Origin: Bdellovibrio sp. ZAP7
Lineage (GTDB): Bacteria; Bdellovibrionota; Bdellovibrionia; Bdellovibrionales; Bdellovibrionaceae
NCBI RefSeq assembly: GCF_006874645.1
Contig: NZ_CP030082.1
Span: 1,178,001 to 1,242,000 of the forward strand
Direction of reading: 5' to 3'
Length of the DNA: 64,000 nt
The number at the start of each line of letters is the position of its first letter. The first letter of the stretch is position 1. A program made the position numbers and the translations under genes. This document shows positions 42,142-48,115 of the stretch, piece by piece. The notes beneath the pieces are model-generated. The model was given only the letters and a program-made list of their open reading frames with translations, did not search any database and had not been told where the DNA came from.

Positions 42142-42144
42142 AAC

Positions 42145-42165
42145 AGTGTCTCTGGTTGAGACACT
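42145..42165 (+). other. Stem-loop after hutH
   Basis: AGTGTCTC and GAGACACT with a TGGTT loop, three bases after the stop. No T run follows, so it may protect the 3' end rather than terminate. Confidence 0.5.
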
Positions 42166-42322
42166 GATAACCTAATGTTCCCAAATTCCTCTGTAATTTG
42201 ATGGCGGTTTTTTTACGTCAATCACTTCTAATTTAGCCGTGGGCAGATAGCGCTCAGCCTGCGGTTCAATTTACACCTTCTCCTTCCGATTATAGACTAC
42301 AATGGTAATCGGGGGATGAATG

Positions 42323-43423
42323 ATGAATGCACCGTCAAAAATCGGAGCCCTGCTTTTCGCTCTGAGTAGTTTAGTTGTCAGTTGCGCTCCCTCAGGCAAT
42401 TCCTGGCAATTGGATCAATCATCAAGTTCAGAAGAATCCGATCAAGGAGTTAAACCAACTCCGACGCCATCAGTGTCGCCAAAACCATCGGTAACCCCGT
42501 CGCCAACAGTTTCACCAACTCCATTTCCGACAGTTAGTCCGACGCCTTCAGTAACACCATCTCCAACCGTAACGCCAACTCCAACGGTAACTCCGACACC
42601 AACTGTCTCGCCGACACCTACGGTTTCGCCGTCACAGTCGCCAAGCCCAACGCCATCGCCGTCAGCGACTCCGTCTCCAACGGCAACACCAATGGTGACA
42701 ATCACTGAGGTCGTGAACAGTCAGATGGCGACATCTCACGAAGCTAAAATTCCTGATATCCGTTACGAGTGGCAAAAAAAGCCGGAAATAATCATGCAGT
42801 CTCCAGCGGCCGCAGATATTCCAAGTTGGTTTCCTTACACGAAACCTGCATGGTGTACGTTGCTAAATTCTTGGATGCAGGTTTTTGAAGCCGAAGGCAA
42901 CACAGCAACGAACACGCGCGTTCAATATCGTAATTTGAAAATTTACGTGCTGTCTGAATCCACTCGCACTTGGAAGCTTCTGTCCAATAATGTGGGCCCA
43001 GGAACTGACACGTGGAAATATCCATTCGATTTCGCAGCCGATGGTGGAACTCGTAATGAAACAACCGGCGGAGTTTCCTTCAAACCTAAGTACCCGCAAT
43101 TTGCCCATGGTTATGGTTCGCAAAACACCATCGTCCCGCAAGACGTACGCGCGGTGTTCGTATCGATGGACACGCGTTTGATATTGGATAAAGCAACCGG
43201 CACAGATGATCGCGCTTCTGCACGCTATCTGGTGAATGTCGGCGCTGACTATTGGCCGAACGCTCAAGCCGTTAATAACTCCTGGTCCTATGCGCCGGGA
43301 GTAGGGCAAGGCCGGTTTATCATTGCGACTCCCGAGTGGAGAAAAGCAACTATGATCGTGCCTAATGGTCGCTATGGTTCATCAATGCAGGAAATGATCT
43401 CGAATCCGCCTCCTTTAGATTAA
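42323..43423 (+). CDS. Lipoprotein with threonine/proline-rich repeats
   Basis: 366 residues. Lipobox LVVSC (Cys at about 20). Residues 45-125 are a repetitive stalk of TP and SP units ([16 protein letters not shown] and similar), coded by a degenerate DNA minisatellite (about 42450-42700). The C-terminal 230 residues form a domain with aromatic residues ([62 protein letters not shown]) that recalls carbohydrate-binding surface domains, though no family was recognised. It would display this domain on a stalk at the cell surface. ATG 42323 is favoured because GGGGG is seven bases before it. Confidence 0.82.
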
Positions 43424-43556
43424 TAATATAAATTCCTAAATAAGAAGCACTGCAGAACCTAACAAGGGTTTTGCTGTGCTTTTGCAGAAATTCGACAGCT
43501 TCTTTTGATTCCCTCGCAAAGATGGTGCTAGATTGGCGGCATCAAGAGGAGTTGAT

Positions 43557-43937
43557 ATGAAAGCATTGACGGCGTTGATTCTTACAAGTTTCCTGGTTCT
43601 TCCCGCGTTTGCGAAAAAAACGATTTGGGTGACTGGCACTGGCAGTGCTTCTGGTTCTTGCAAAGGCGGAGATTCTTTCTGCCCACGTAATCTTCAGTCT
43701 CGCGCTGAAACCACCGCGAAAAACAATGCAAGTTCAACTTGCACTATCAAGGGTGGCGTCTCGATGGGAATTCCATCTTGTTCATCCCATTGCTCGCCAG
43801 GATATATTTCCCCGGGCAATAGCGCTTGGGTAAGCTGCAATGCCAGCTGCCGTGTAAGCTGCCGCGTGGATGACAACGTTCCTGGATTTGGTTTGCAACC
43901 AAATGGTTTCTTCGAAGGCACTGACGAAGAAATTTAA
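43557..43937 (+). CDS. Small exported protein with eight cysteines
   Basis: 126 residues, signal peptide ending in PAFAKKT. The mature 108 residues contain eight Cys (GSCK, SFCP, STCT, PSCSSHC, VSCN, ASC, VSC), four possible disulfides, with Ser, Gly and Asn between them and a run SCNASCRVSCRV. GAGGAG lies seven bases before the ATG; the longer reading from 43533 lacks a signal peptide at its start. A compact disulfide-rich extracellular protein such as an inhibitor, toxin or coat component is possible, but nothing identifies it. Confidence 0.75.
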   Translation: MKALTALILTSFLVLPAFAKKTIWVTGTGSASGSCKGGDSFCPRNLQSRAETTAKNNASSTCTIKGGVSMGIPSCSSHCSPGYISPGNSAWVSCNASCRVSCRVDDNVPGFGLQPNGFFEGTDEEI

Positions 43938-43954
43938 TAAAATTAGATTTCGAT

Positions 43955-43980
43955 AAAGCGACCCACCCGGGTCGCTTTTA
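43955..43980 (+). terminator. Intrinsic terminator after the Cys-rich protein gene
   Basis: AAAGCGACCC, ACCC loop, GGGTCGCTTT and TTA. The stem is 10 bp without mismatch. Confidence 0.85.
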
Positions 43981-44095
43981 GTTTCATCTCAGACCGATCG
44001 CTCGGGGAACGCTAATTCTATGCATTGATATACGACTAGTGGCTTAAAACCATTTCATACTTGATCGGCTTGATTATGGTTGCTACTTGTAGGCA

Positions 44096-44476
44096 ATGGA
44101 TTTTATTGGTCACATATCATTTTCTGTCTCAGATTTTCAAAAATCTCTAGCGTTTTACGATGCAGTACTGGGCGAGCTTGGACATCAACGAATGTATACC
44201 GCTGCTTCAGGGGCAGGTTGGGGTAGATCTGTAGGAAGAGAGTTTTTCGAGATCAAAAAACGCGTTGAAAAGGCAAGCGCACCGAGTGAAGGTTTTCATT
44301 TGGCTTTTCATGCTAACAAAAAAGAGGAAGTTCATCGATTTTATGAACAGGCTCTGAAGCATGGAGGCCGAGACAATGGAGCTCCTGGGCCTCGCCCTGA
44401 TTACGGAACAGACTACTACGCAGCTTTTGTCATTGATCCTGATGGCTATGAGCTTGAAGTAAAATTATTCGTGTAG
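44096..44476 (+). CDS. VOC-family (glyoxalase-fold) protein
   Basis: 126 residues with the paired beta-alpha-beta layout of the VOC fold: HISFSVSDFQKSLAFYDAVLGELG at the start (metal His at about 6) and YYAAFVIDPDGYELEVKLFV at the end (metal Glu in the YELE motif). Members bind a metal and act on small molecules, for example in antibiotic or electrophile resistance. The substrate is unknown. First gene of the accessory block; a terminator copy shared with the tailspike-like gene follows it. Confidence 0.85.
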   Translation: MDFIGHISFSVSDFQKSLAFYDAVLGELGHQRMYTAASGAGWGRSVGREFFEIKKRVEKASAPSEGFHLAFHANKKEEVHRFYEQALKHGGRDNGAPGPRPDYGTDYYAAFVIDPDGYELEVKLFV

Positions 44477-44490
44477 ACTGACTAAACCTA

Positions 44491-44545
44491 TTGTTTCTAA
44501 TCAAAAGCCTGTCCCTAAAAAGACGGGCTTTGTCGCGTTTAGAGG
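44491..44545 (+). repeat. Terminator-containing repeat, copy A
   Basis: A 55-base element with TTGTTTCTAATC, a hairpin (AAGCCTGTC/GACGGGCTT) and the tail GCGTTTAGAGG. It matches copy B at 46670-46722 apart from a few changes, including sequence after the hairpin that a terminator would not need. Confidence 0.7.
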
Positions 44546-44831
44546 CCGTCCTATGGCGATAAGCCACGTACGAAATTGATTCATGCCAGACCTGTAAAAT
44601 GAAATAGTGTCCTCTGAAATAAGCGGCGGAAAAATTTGGATTCAGCTGTGAGGAGCGGTTTTAATCGTCGTCATTTAGTTTTACAAAAAAATTCAGTTTC
44701 TGCTCTCGTTTGCTCCAGGAGATTACGCCGAGCTCCTATTGCGCTTTGGTGACCACAGCCGGATCCTATTCACTCGTGATTAGGAACTCTGGGGCTGATC
44801 TCTGCAGTCTCAATTAACGTAAGGATGATTC
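44546..44831. other. Non-coding stretch before the tailspike-like gene
   Basis: About 285 bases without a gene. Possible stems AGGAG/CTCCT near 44717-44740 and CCTA/TAGG near 44767-44785 may belong to the leader of the next gene. Nothing else recognisable. Confidence 0.4.
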
Positions 44832-46664
44832 ATGCAAAGAAGACAAGTCTTGCAATCCGTTGGCAGCTCTTTGGTTACTGCTCTATCACTTGCTACTATT
44901 TCCAGAACTGCTGAGGCAGCAGTTTTGCCACCAAGTTTGGCTCAAGGAGACATCGGGTCCGTAGCAGAGCTGCGCACTACAAAACCCTCAGCTAATGGCG
45001 CTAAGATGACAGTAAGAAGCTATCATTCGGGGCTTAACGTTGGTGGTGGCGACTTTATCGGTTATTTATCAAGTGGAACAGATGATGGCGGGACTGTCTT
45101 TGCTGGCAGTGGCTTTTATTGGCGTCGTGTGATCAATGATCCCAACAATCTGACGGTGTTTGATTTTGGTGCAAAGGCCGACGGTAAAACTGATGCATTA
45201 CCGGCAGTCAGAGCGATGTTTGATTGGTCAAAAGCTAACTATCCCACACTTGGCATTCAGTTTCCTGCGGGCACGTTTTTTATGTCAGGTTTTAATTTTG
45301 GAGCAGCAGAAATACCATTCTTCCGTATGGCGGGAGCGAACGTAAATTTCGGTTATTTCGCGGGGACGACGTTGCTTTCGGATGGAGCTACGAGTTCTTT
45401 GATTAAAGTAAATGCGCGCAGGGTAGAGCTTTCAAATCTGGTCTTCAAGGGACAGGCTGATACAAAACCAAATTACCAAGGGTTCTTTGATAATATTTGT
45501 ACTGGTGGACAGTTTTTCCGAGGCTCCTGTTTGCGCTTTGATAAAGTAGGGGGCGCTTCTATAAGTCTTTTGGATACTCTAGATTGCAAAATTGACCAAT
45601 TTTACGCAAGTGCCTGTCAAAATGATGTGATCAGAGCCCGTTGGTCAGGGCGAGCAGCTGGAAATTGGGATCACAGCACTGCGATTGAACTTTCCAATTT
45701 CAATTTGCAAAACTGTAAAAGCGGCAAGGTTTTAAACTTGCCACGCTGTACTCAGTCGCTAATTTATAATGGGTGGATCGAGCACTGTACTAATCCAGGA
45801 GATATCTCCAACGGACAATGGATTCTTGATGCATTCAGTATTGAAGACTGTGAGAACCCGTTGAATGCGCGTTGGTCGCGCTTGAATTCGCGTCAGATTA
45901 ATTTGCAATCTGGAAGCAGTATTGACAATTCCATGCAAGGCACTGACCCTAGCCGCTGGTTGAGTGCTTGGGAGATGGGTTCATCAAGAGTTGAGTCCTT
46001 TGGTGCCGCTTTCGACGGAAGTCTGAAATATAATTTCCTTACTTCACGTTTTAGACTTAGCAACGATACTGGTCAGGCGACTTGGTTTCAGTTGGGAAAT
46101 TTCTTTACGCCTAACATGGGAGATAGTTGGGAAATTGAATTATTTGGTCAAACACAGTACGGCAACGGTAGTGACACTCAGGTACTAATGAATCCGGTTA
46201 ATGGGAAAACCACTGGCGGGCGCGCTGTCATTCACATGCAACACAAAACGGATAAGTTGGCAGAGGCGAGTTGGTCAGCAGAAGGAAATTCTCCGGTGCA
46301 GGAAGTGCGAATTGTGCAACGATCTGCTACAGATACTAGAGTATTCGTGAAGATTGCGAACTGGACGCCAATTGTTATGGTGTTAATGAAGACTAACGGT
46401 AAGGATCGCTTTATGGCTGGGCAATGCATACGCTTTGACGCCGTCATGACAGCTGAAACTCCTCCGAGTAACAGTCTAGTAGCTCCTCAGCGCTTTAGTT
46501 TGCACAATGGAAAAGCCGGAATCGGTGGCAACGAGCAGGGTGATTTGTTGATGGCGTCGCGAGTTCTAACTGCTTCGCAGGTCGACACAAGCAAAGCCAA
46601 AGGCTATTTGTCTGTGGTGATCAATGGTGAACAAGTCGCCATTCCTTATTTTGATGTGAAGTAA
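44832..46664 (+). CDS. Tat-exported tailspike-like beta-helix protein
   Basis: 610 residues. The N-terminus has a twin-arginine signal (QRRQVLQS, then a hydrophobic stretch and ISRTAEAA). The next 70 residues (SVAELRTTKPSANGAKMTVRSYHSG, GTDDGGTVFAGSGFYWRR) match the head-binding-like module found in phage tailspikes and bacterial capsule-degrading proteins, followed by TVFDFGAKADGKTDALPAVRAMF, the usual opening of a pectate-lyase-like beta-helix. The middle has many short Asn-rich turns, as in such helices, and the C-terminus a beta-sandwich-like tail. The likely role is depolymerising or binding a surface polysaccharide. Flanked by two copies of a repeat. Codon use is less biased than in neighbouring housekeeping genes. 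Confidence 0.75.
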   Translation: MQRRQVLQSVGSSLVTALSLATISRTAEAAVLPPSLAQGDIGSVAELRTTKPSANGAKMTVRSYHSGLNVGGGDFIGYLSSGTDDGGTVFAGSGFYWRRVINDPNNLTVFDFGAKADGKTDALPAVRAMFDWSKANYPTLGIQFPAGTFFMSGFNFGAAEIPFFRMAGANVNFGYFAGTTLLSDGATSSLIKVNARRVELSNLVFKGQADTKPNYQGFFDNICTGGQFFRGSCLRFDKVGGASISLLDTLDCKIDQFYASACQNDVIRARWSGRAAGNWDHSTAIELSNFNLQNCKSGKVLNLPRCTQSLIYNGWIEHCTNPGDISNGQWILDAFSIEDCENPLNARWSRLNSRQINLQSGSSIDNSMQGTDPSRWLSAWEMGSSRVESFGAAFDGSLKYNFLTSRFRLSNDTGQATWFQLGNFFTPNMGDSWEIELFGQTQYGNGSDTQVLMNPVNGKTTGGRAVIHMQHKTDKLAEASWSAEGNSPVQEVRIVQRSATDTRVFVKIANWTPIVMVLMKTNGKDRFMAGQCIRFDAVMTAETPPSNSLVAPQRFSLHNGKAGIGGNEQGDLLMASRVLTASQVDTSKAKGYLSVVINGEQVAIPYFDVK

Positions 46665-46669
46665 AATTC

Positions 46670-46722
46670 TTGTTTCTAATCCAGAGCCCGTCCTAAAAAG
46701 ACGGGCTTGTTGCGTTTAGAGG
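46670..46722 (+). repeat. Terminator-containing repeat, copy B
   Basis: Same element as 44491-44545, with hairpin AGCCCGTC/GACGGGCT (46685-46707) that is a perfect 8-bp stem. It follows the tailspike-like gene. Confidence 0.7.
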
Positions 46723-46827
46723 TTGGATGGAATGAATAGATTCAATATGCCTGTGCGTTTTAAGCCATGAGTTGGCTTAAAAGCATTTACTAAGTGACCT
46801 GTCAGAGATTCGTAGCTATAAGAAACT

Positions 46828-47388
46828 ATGGTTGAATTGAAACCAACGGAATTGAAAGGATACAGAATCCAACTTCGCTCCTTAAAAAAAGGGGATGCAG
46901 TTCCGTTGTTCCATCACTATTTTGGCTCCACATCGTCCTCTAAATTCCTCGCACGCCAACCTTATAAGTCCATTGAACAGGTGGACGATTTTCTAAATCA
47001 GTGGACGCAAAACGCTTGGAGTTCGGCTGGGAGTCCGTTTGCATGGGTCATTGCAGATATTGTTGCGTCGGAACCCATCGGCATCTTTCTGGTATTCCCG
47101 AAAATGCAAGAAGTTGAAATTCACTATGGAATCTCAGAAATGCACGCGGGTCACGGATACGCATCTGAAGCTTGTGATCTAGCTACAACTTGGCTGCTTG
47201 ATCAGAAAGGAATTGAACTTGTTCAGACTGCTGTTGACGTCGAACATTTTGCGACGCAAAGGGTTCTAGAAAAATCAGGATTTCAGAAAAAAGAAATTCT
47301 AAAGAATCGACTGGTACTACCGGCTTTTGGACCAGAATCTCGCGATGCAATTTTATATCAAAAAAATAAGTTAGCTTTGGCCAAGTAA
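46828..47388 (+). CDS. GNAT-family N-acetyltransferase (RimJ/RimL-like)
   Basis: 186 residues. The RimJ/L layout is visible: LKGYRIQLRSLKKGDAVPLFHHY at the start, then EIHYGISEMHAGHGYASEACDLATTWLLD carrying the acetyl-CoA loop, and VDVEHFATQRVLEKSGFQKK. It would acetylate a protein N-terminus or small amine using acetyl-CoA. The substrate is unknown. Upstream, GGCTTAAAA-CATTT about 54 bases before the ATG is nearly the same as upstream of the VOC gene (55 bases), suggesting a shared promoter element. Confidence 0.85.
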   Translation: MVELKPTELKGYRIQLRSLKKGDAVPLFHHYFGSTSSSKFLARQPYKSIEQVDDFLNQWTQNAWSSAGSPFAWVIADIVASEPIGIFLVFPKMQEVEIHYGISEMHAGHGYASEACDLATTWLLDQKGIELVQTAVDVEHFATQRVLEKSGFQKKEILKNRLVLPAFGPESRDAILYQKNKLALAK

Positions 47389-47404
47389 TCCTTATTTTCC
47401 ATTC

Positions 47405-47432
47405 AAAGCCTGATCAGAAATGATCAGGCTTT
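47405..47432. terminator. 12-bp perfect hairpin with GAAA loop
   Basis: AAAGCCTGATCA, GAAA, TGATCAGGCTTT between the convergent GNAT and DTW genes, overlapping the end of the latter. Usable from both strands. Confidence 0.85.
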
Positions 47433-48028
47433 ATGCCGCGGCCTTGAAGCGTGCCTTCAAGTTTTACGCGGTAAAGTTTCATCAAAGGTTCTTTGGCAGC
47501 TTCGCCTTCGATAATTCCGATAGCTTCCGCAATGGCTTGCAAAGTCGCCATACCTTCCGGAGTGTTTTCTGCGCGCATGTGTACTGGTGACTGGTTTGGT
47601 GTTTTGATCATCACTCGCGGGACATCTTTTAACTCATGATGACGATAGTGAACTTTACTGGCCTGGCGCCAGTTTCCATCCGGAACAATCAATTGAATGG
47701 GGCGGGGATCTTCGGCGACAAACTCTGCCGTCAATTCCCTGGCATCATCTGAAGGATAAAACATGACGGTGCGATACTCCGGCGTCAGCAAATCACTCAA
47801 GTCCAAAGCATTTTGATCGGCTCCGCGAATGCGCATTTCGCTGTTCACCAAGGCTTCAATCGCCAGTCTGCCGGTGTTGGTTGTGCGTTTGAGCTCTTTG
47901 GCATGTACGACCAGGCAAAGGCGGGTTTTTAGGTCTAATTTAGGAATGAACGCACAGACACAGCGGCTTTTGTTTAAAAAGCAGACGGGGCAAGGGTCTT
48001 TGGTCTTTCTTTTACGTTCTAGAGTCAT
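47414..48028 (-). CDS. DTW-domain protein, probable tRNA-uridine aminocarboxypropyltransferase
   Basis: 204 residues. The N-terminal cysteine cluster CPVCFLNKSRCVC and the family block VPDGNWRQASKVHYRH (a variant of the DxTW motif) place it in the TapT/YfiP family, which makes acp3U in tRNA from SAM. The C-terminal part has the family segment THxAENTPEGMATLQAIAEAIGIIEG-like. The ATG at 48028 has no Shine-Dalgarno motif but lies right at the predicted transcription start, so it may be translated from a leaderless message. It is divergent from hutU and convergent with the GNAT gene. Confidence 0.85.
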   Translation of the reverse strand: MTLERKRKTKDPCPVCFLNKSRCVCAFIPKLDLKTRLCLVVHAKELKRTTNTGRLAIEALVNSEMRIRGADQNALDLSDLLTPEYRTVMFYPSDDARELTAEFVAEDPRPIQLIVPDGNWRQASKVHYRHHELKDVPRVMIKTPNQSPVHMRAENTPEGMATLQAIAEAIGIIEGEAAKEPLMKLYRVKLEGTLQGRGIKPDHF

Positions 48029-48035
48029 CGGGCCC

Positions 48036-48064
48036 ACTATTGATGCAGAGCGCTTAATTGTCAA
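48036..48064 (-). promoter_or_regulatory. Promoter of the DTW gene, likely leaderless
   Basis: TTGACA (48064-48059), 17-base spacer, AATAGT (48041-48036). Transcription would begin near 48029, one base from the ATG. Confidence 0.55.
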
Positions 48065-48115
48065 TACCAGCGACCTTTGTTAGGTTCTAGCTCTTCAGAT
48101 TTCAAAGGAGAGCAC

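What the first reader, a model, noticed from the sequence alone, without database searches (positions are those of the whole stretch)
44832..46664. Bacterial tailspike-like protein with a Tat signal
The N-terminal module and TVFDFGAKADGKTD opening are typical of phage tailspikes and capsule-degrading enzymes, yet the protein has a twin-arginine signal and no phage genes lie nearby. In a predator it could act on prey capsule or on the cell's own polysaccharide.
Basis: partly seen in the sequence, partly recalled or inferred. Interest (0 to 1): 0.6.

Follow-up and report, generated by a model that had tools for sequence, protein, structure and literature searches.

The report
Headless WceF-type slime enzyme in predator
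A probable predatory bacterium carries a secreted enzyme of a type otherwise seen in the slime-making gene clusters of plant-associated bacteria and in their phages, which suggests it cuts the slime coat of its prey.

Summary
Window 44832-46664 (+) is an intact 610-aa gene with an N-terminal RR motif, a tailspike "neck", a right-handed beta-helix and no phage genes nearby. It is not an orphan tailspike: it is a relative (62% identity, full length after the signal) of Pantoea stewartii WceF (PDB 6tgf), a published Tat-exported, trimeric beta-helix hydrolase of the exopolysaccharide stewartan. It differs in three ways: the P22-tailspike-like head domain is missing, no EPS synthesis cluster surrounds it, and it sits in a predator-type genome. 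Of 24 genomes in the genus, 4 carry it (one twice), at three kinds of site; no other genus of the class does (68 examined). In two Erwiniaceae loci inspected, the counterpart lies among glycosyltransferase and flippase genes. None of the 24 has a Wza-type exporter, so prey EPS is the likelier substrate (inferred). Codon use matches the host and dN/dS is about 0.1, so it is a settled, selected gene. Best reading: an enzyme shared by gene transfer with prey-type bacteria, exported by Tat, that cuts galactose-rich EPS during predation. Substrate, oligomer and final location are untested. A solid, moderately interesting new variant of a known kind.

The parts
44821..44829 (+). ribosome-binding site AAGGATGAT, the only clearly conserved upstream stretch in all five copies of the genus
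   Evidence: alignment of 250 nt upstream of the five copies
44832..46664 (+). gene for headless WceF-type exopolysaccharide hydrolase, 610 aa
44832..44918 (+). twin-arginine type signal peptide (residues 1-29, MQRRQVLQ...AEA), similar to that of WceF
   Evidence: cleavage site by eye, not by a predictor
44943..45146 (+). neck domain (about residues 38-105); the head domain that precedes it in WceF is absent
   Evidence: head = PF09008 in L103 protein, none in the window protein
45147..45986 (+). right-handed parallel beta-helix (about residues 106-385)
45573..45845 (+). stretch holding the invariant candidate catalytic residues D248, D251, H281, E286, E317, E338
   Evidence: acidic (or His) in all 79 rows; catalytic role inferred
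45987..46661 (+). triple-helix, beta-sandwich and C-terminal stem region (about residues 386-610)
   Evidence: alignment to WceF up to residue 735; strands
46684..46708 (+). terminator-like hairpin after the gene
   Evidence: related copy 44483-44520 upstream

Best explanation
The gene encodes a headless member of the WceF family: a protein exported by Tat, probably a homotrimer of right-handed beta-helices, that slowly hydrolyses a galactose-containing exopolysaccharide of the stewartan/amylovoran/colanic type between its repeat units. It is shared by horizontal transfer with Erwiniaceae-type bacteria, where the counterpart trims the cell's own EPS. In this predator it stands alone and most likely acts on the EPS of prey, either thinning the slime coat at attack or cutting the polymer inside the invaded prey. 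Shown: homology, fold, RR motif, TatC in the genome, absence of the head domain, solitary context, patchy distribution, purifying selection. Inferred: trimer, catalysis, substrate, prey as target, and how it crosses the outer membrane.
For: 62% identity to WceF over 563 aligned residues, Z 50.0; phmmer E 9.2e-255. Tree: 17 Erwiniaceae-type WceF rows and the 5 rows of this genus form one clade (100/100) apart from phage and paralogue rows. D248, D251, H281, E286, E317 and E338 are acidic (or His) in all 79 rows. WceF is an experimentally shown stewartan hydrolase with a Tat signal and a trimeric fold (PMC7949094, parts 1-3 of 6 read). 0 of 24 genus genomes have Poly_export/Wza, while the E. coli control rings. 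No glycosyltransferase among the neighbouring proteins scanned, whereas two counterparts sit in EPS clusters. dN/dS 0.097 between G000 and G022.
Against: WceF lacking its head domain was soluble but aggregated (PMC7949094), so a headless protein might be unstable; against that, another headless form stands in an EPS cluster (L104). 38% of residues differ from WceF, so the substrate may differ. Bdellovibrio HD100 is reported to have capsular polysaccharide genes bd1677-bd1702 (PMC3539863, passage), so a polysaccharide of its own is conceivable. No expression data. Tat takes it only to the periplasm.
Confidence: 0.6

Rival explanations
1. The enzyme trims or remodels a polysaccharide made by the predator itself, as WceF does in Pantoea.
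For: WceF acts on the producer's own EPS (PMC7949094). HD100 is reported to have capsule genes bd1677-bd1702 (PMC3539863, passage).
Against: 0 of 24 genus genomes have a Wza-type exporter. No glycosyltransferase among the neighbouring proteins scanned at the three kinds of site. 20 of 24 genomes of the genus do without it.
Confidence: 0.2
2. It has become a polysaccharide-binding lectin or adhesin rather than an enzyme, comparable in role to the mosaic adhesive trimer fibres of Bdellovibrio.
For: WceF clusters with stewartan in a lectin-like way and cleaves it slowly (PMC7949094). Bdellovibrio uses tail-fibre-like trimers to handle prey (PMC10769870, passages), and the genome has four S74 matches.
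Against: The candidate catalytic residues are all kept. It has no S74 domain and no sequence match to fibre chains in the PDB.
Confidence: 0.12
3. It is a remnant of a prophage tailspike that gained a signal by chance.
For: Tailspike fold, and Erwinia and other phages encode relatives at about 33-46% identity.
Against: The RR signal is shared with all 17 bacterial WceF rows and absent from 7 of 7 phage/viral rows. The closest relatives outside the genus are bacterial at 55-66% identity. No phage genes nearby. Purifying selection.
Confidence: 0.04

Closest known systems
WceF of Pantoea stewartii (PDB 6tgf) and its Erwiniaceae orthologues
   Same: 62% identity from neck to C-terminus, RR-type signal of the same sequence pattern (MKRREVLQTAAS / MQRRQVLQSVGS), same fold (Z 50.0)
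   Different: Head domain (PF09008) absent; gene not in an EPS synthesis cluster; host of a different class of bacteria
EPS depolymerase tailspikes of Erwinia jumbo phages (phrog_4250; PhiEaH1 amsF, Deimos-Minion gp79)
   Same: Neck plus beta-helix, same invariant acidic residues, 41-43% identity
   Different: No signal peptide, phage-encoded, parts after the helix only 22-33% alike
Headless WceF-like protein of Pantoea sp. A4 (L038/L104)
   Same: RR signal, no head domain, neck, beta-helix; 57% identity
   Different: Lies in an EPS cluster; keeps the linker that precedes the neck in WceF, so head loss looks independent
Mosaic adhesive trimers (MATs) of Bdellovibrio bacteriovorus
   Same: Secreted tail-fibre-like trimeric beta-helices, one resembling the P22 tailspike (PMC10769870, passages)
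   Different: No sequence match to them, no S74 chaperone; described as adhesins

Membership tests
WceF-type EPS hydrolase family | full-length sequence homology from neck to C-terminus | tested here: met
   residues 38-610 on 167-735 of 6tgf, 62% identity
WceF-type EPS hydrolase family | right-handed parallel beta-helix with neck and C-terminal sandwich | tested here: met
   (monomer model)
WceF-type EPS hydrolase family | homotrimer | not testable with these tools
   only a single chain could be predicted
WceF-type EPS hydrolase family | twin-arginine signal | tested here: met
   RRxVL motif with AEA cleavage-like site; no dedicated predictor run
WceF sensu stricto (Erwiniaceae) | P22-tailspike-like head domain (PF09008) | tested here: not met
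   present in L103 protein, absent from window protein
WceF sensu stricto (Erwiniaceae) | gene inside an EPS synthesis cluster | tested here: not met
WceF-type EPS hydrolase family | hydrolysis of stewartan or a related EPS | not testable with these tools
   candidate catalytic residues kept, activity unknown
Phage tailspike depolymerase | virion protein in a phage genome | tested here: not met
   no convincing phage genes among 10 neighbouring proteins; signal peptide present
Bdellovibrio MAT fibres | sequence relation to MAT tips or S74 chaperone domain | tested here: not met
   no S74 match at E 1 and no match to MAT chains in the PDB at E 10

The most novel reading that the evidence does not exclude
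A lineage of intraperiplasmic predators has taken a slime-trimming enzyme of the type its prey use on themselves, dropped the head domain, holds two copies in one species, and uses it to breach or digest the EPS coat of Erwiniaceae-type prey: a prey-type tool turned against prey.
Probability: 0.4. Interest if true: 0.65.

Novelty: new variant of a known kind. Interest (0 to 1): 0.42.

Why it matters
How Bdellovibrio-type predators deal with capsules and slime is, to my knowledge, poorly explained. A single, solitary, selected gene whose relative is structurally and biochemically known gives a direct handle: purify it, test it on defined EPS, delete it and measure predation on mucoid prey. It would also show that tailspike-type glycanases circulate between phages, EPS producers and predators. 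The natural headless forms bear on the open question of what the head domain of WceF does.

Tried and rejected
Direct phage origin: rejected on tree, signal and identity. Recent transfer seen by composition: GC 0.460, GC3 0.421 and codon index 0.739 lie within the range of the window's other genes, so composition gives no sign of recent arrival. Strict monophyly of the five copies: the free tree puts G021's hut copy next to Erwiniaceae WceF, but one clade is not rejected (AU p 0.249), so I do not claim two acquisitions. A promoter scan found no sigma-70-like site in 43900-47500. The neck is more alike than the rest between some copies (G022-G011 third positions: 8 of 68 differ against 168 of 502, p 0.00014), which suggests exchange within the gene, but this is marginal for G000-G011 (p 0.051) and absent for G000-G021b (p 0.59), so I do not build on it. 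Searches for print: Bdellovibrio with tailspike (4 papers); with exopolysaccharide and depolymerase (15); with Erwinia amylovora, Pantoea, predation (65 holding 3 of 4 terms, 12 listed); WceF with Pantoea stewartii and tailspike (7). No listed title reports WceF in a predator; only titles and abstract starts were seen, except for the papers named in the report. MAT fibres are not among the 50 entries shown by VIA-align; this says nothing against relation.

Rows dropped before counts: L051 (internal TAG), L009 and L045 (internal stop), L021 (partial), L060, and L041-L048 (mostly the same genes as L007-L018) were left out of the 41-row tree; phage_L058b, vir_L020 and para_L014 (long branches) were left out of the second tree. 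In the 79-row alignment, L061 and L074 repeat L019 and L020, and stop signs in IMG/VR rows were written X.

Full report
The window has an intact ORF of 610 codons at 44832-46664 (+). It matches phrog_4250 'EPS depolymerase' at E 1.8e-199 over residues 38-608, and 13 further PHROGs (10 of kind tail, 3 of unknown function) mostly through its N-terminal part. Pfam gives only a sub-threshold Pect-lyase_RHGA_epim hit and NCBIfam nothing.

The nearest solved relative is Pantoea stewartii WceF, PDB 6tgf (phmmer E 9.2e-255, query 38-610 on 167-735). The published work (PMC7949094; I read parts 1 to 3 of 6, plus a term search that found no mention of 'catalytic' or 'active site') reports that WceF is encoded in the stewartan cluster, has a Tat signal, crystallises as a trimer of right-handed beta-helices with head, neck, helix, sandwich and stem, and hydrolyses stewartan slowly to single repeat units. 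Mutations in wceF gave longer stewartan. Its final location was not determined. So a bacterial tailspike-like protein with a Tat signal was already known as a kind.

A model of the window protein from a 29-row alignment (A2) has mean pLDDT 84.1 and pTM 0.67. Foldseek ranks the three chains of 6tgf first (E 9.0e-72 for the best). VIA-align gives Z 50.0 with 563 residues aligned at 62% identity; the rmsd of 14.7 A over the full length probably reflects a shift between domains in the single-chain model (inference). The next best rows are phage tailspike depolymerases at Z 27.7 and below.

The main difference from WceF is the missing head. Of 17 WceF counterparts in Erwiniaceae-type genomes, 16 are 736-741 aa long and one is 634 aa; the long one scanned has PF09008 Head_binding at residues 49-147. 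In the window protein the signal peptide runs almost directly into the neck. The signal itself is alike in both (MKRREVLQTAAS in WceF, MQRRQVLQSVGS here), so the likely history is loss of the head between signal and neck. The 634-aa counterpart (Pantoea sp. A4, L038) is headless too, but keeps the linker that precedes the neck, so its loss looks independent. This bears on the report that WceF constructs without the head aggregated (PMC7949094): natural headless forms exist.

Distribution. In the genus, 4 of 24 genomes carry the gene: G000 (the window), G022 (96%), G011 (75%) and G021 twice (73% and 68%). In the class, 4 of 143 genomes and 1 of 68 genera. By hutH identity the three others are the nearest relatives of G000 (99, 97 and 94%; the next is 89%). 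In 11 of 11 Erwiniaceae-type genomes searched there is a WceF counterpart at 61-66% identity plus further paralogues at 38-43%; these 11 were chosen because they held a relative, and a twelfth locus was not held. In a sample of 295 genomes of the family of G197, 9 have a counterpart at E <= 1e-180. In 369 genomes of its class only the centre genome itself matched at E <= 1e-60.

Phylogeny. In a 41-row tree the 17 WceF rows and the five rows of this genus form one clade with support 100/100, away from phages and paralogues. Within it four of the five sit outside the Erwiniaceae rows, and G021's hut copy is sister to them; one clade for all five is not rejected (AU p 0.249). Donor and direction are therefore open; gene transfer between the two groups is the plain reading, because the gene is patchy in both and the hosts are only distantly related.

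Site. In 16 of the 22 genomes with hutH and hutU on one contig, the two genes lie within about 130 bases of each other (worked out by hand from the coordinates). G000, G022 and G021 have the WceF-type gene in an enlarged gap between them. G011 has two of the other genes of this gap but carries the WceF-type gene elsewhere, about 210 bases from a tRNA-Leu gene. G021's second copy is at a further site. The five copies share a ribosome-binding site but no longer upstream stretch, and the window copy has a terminator-like hairpin of its own, so the gene seems to travel as a single unit.

Selection and age. GC 0.460, GC3 0.421 and codon index 0.739 are within the range of neighbouring genes, against GC 0.547 and GC3 0.641 of an Erwiniaceae counterpart. 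dN/dS is 0.097 for G000 against G022 and 0.22-0.32 for the other pairs; for hutH of G000 against G022 it is about 0.009. The gene has the host's composition and is under selection.

Active site. In a 79-row alignment of bacterial, paralogous, phage and IMG/VR rows, D248, D251, H281, E286 and E338 are invariant and E317 is always acidic. They lie in the helix; that they are catalytic is inferred. The helix is the part best kept between the window protein and phages (54-57%, against 22-33% for the parts after it).

What it does here. The two WceF counterparts inspected lie among glycosyltransferases, a flippase-type Polysacc_synt protein and a pyruvyltransferase (L103; L104). In this genus none of the neighbouring proteins scanned is a glycosyltransferase (7 proteins, 8 each), and 0 of 24 genomes have a Wza-type Poly_export domain, while the same search rings in E. 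coli and three other controls. An EPS of the Wza-exported type is thus unlikely to be the predator's own, which favours prey EPS. Against this, HD100 is reported to carry capsular polysaccharide genes bd1677-bd1702 (PMC3539863, passage seen), so a polysaccharide exported in another way is possible.

Is it a predator? Four S74 matches in long open frames; two of these proteins weakly resemble 'bd2133' (E 5.4e-5) and 'cell wall surface anchor' chains (E 6.5e-6 and 8.1e-5) in the PDB (the top row is a myelin regulatory factor, 3.2e-6), which fits the mosaic adhesive trimers of Bdellovibrio (PMC10769870, passages). I take it as Bdellovibrio-type with fair confidence, as an inference. TatC is present. 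[quoted passage not shown] 2011, seen only in the reference list of PMC3539863. PMC2797640 (passages) gave nothing on this gene.

Verdict. A headless, solitary member of the WceF family in a predator lineage, probably exported by Tat and probably acting on prey EPS. The kind is known; the host, the absence of the head there and the likely use are new as far as my searches went.

Noticed in passing
window 42142-48076; L022, L023, L026, L106, L107: The hutH-hutU junction is a gene-gathering spot in the genus: adjacent in 16 of 22 genomes, but filled in others, often with secreted or surface-type genes, including a 1627-aa lipoprotein-type ORF in G005 and a small lipoprotein-type ORF in G008.
   Followed up: partly
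window 44483-44520 and 46662-46699: Two related terminator-like stretches (79% alike over 38 nt) flank the gene, one after the glyoxalase gene and one after the WceF-type gene; G022 has a related stretch on both sides without the glyoxalase.
   Followed up: partly
window 44096-44476 and 46828-47388: A glyoxalase-family gene and a GNAT acetyltransferase gene flank the WceF-type gene in G000 but not in G022, so they were gained or lost since the two split.
   Followed up: partly
window 42320-43423: Secreted lipoprotein-type protein with a long TPSPTVSP-like repeat that varies between G000 and G022.
   Followed up: no
L003 and L004, codons 38-105 of the gene: The neck of the WceF-type gene has far fewer third-position differences between G022 and G011 than the rest (8 of 68 against 168 of 502, p 0.00014), which suggests exchange within the gene.
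   Followed up: partly
L058 157-2664 and 2767-4809: Xanthomonas phage XaC1 has two adjacent genes related to this family, 32% and 39% identical to the window protein.
   Followed up: no
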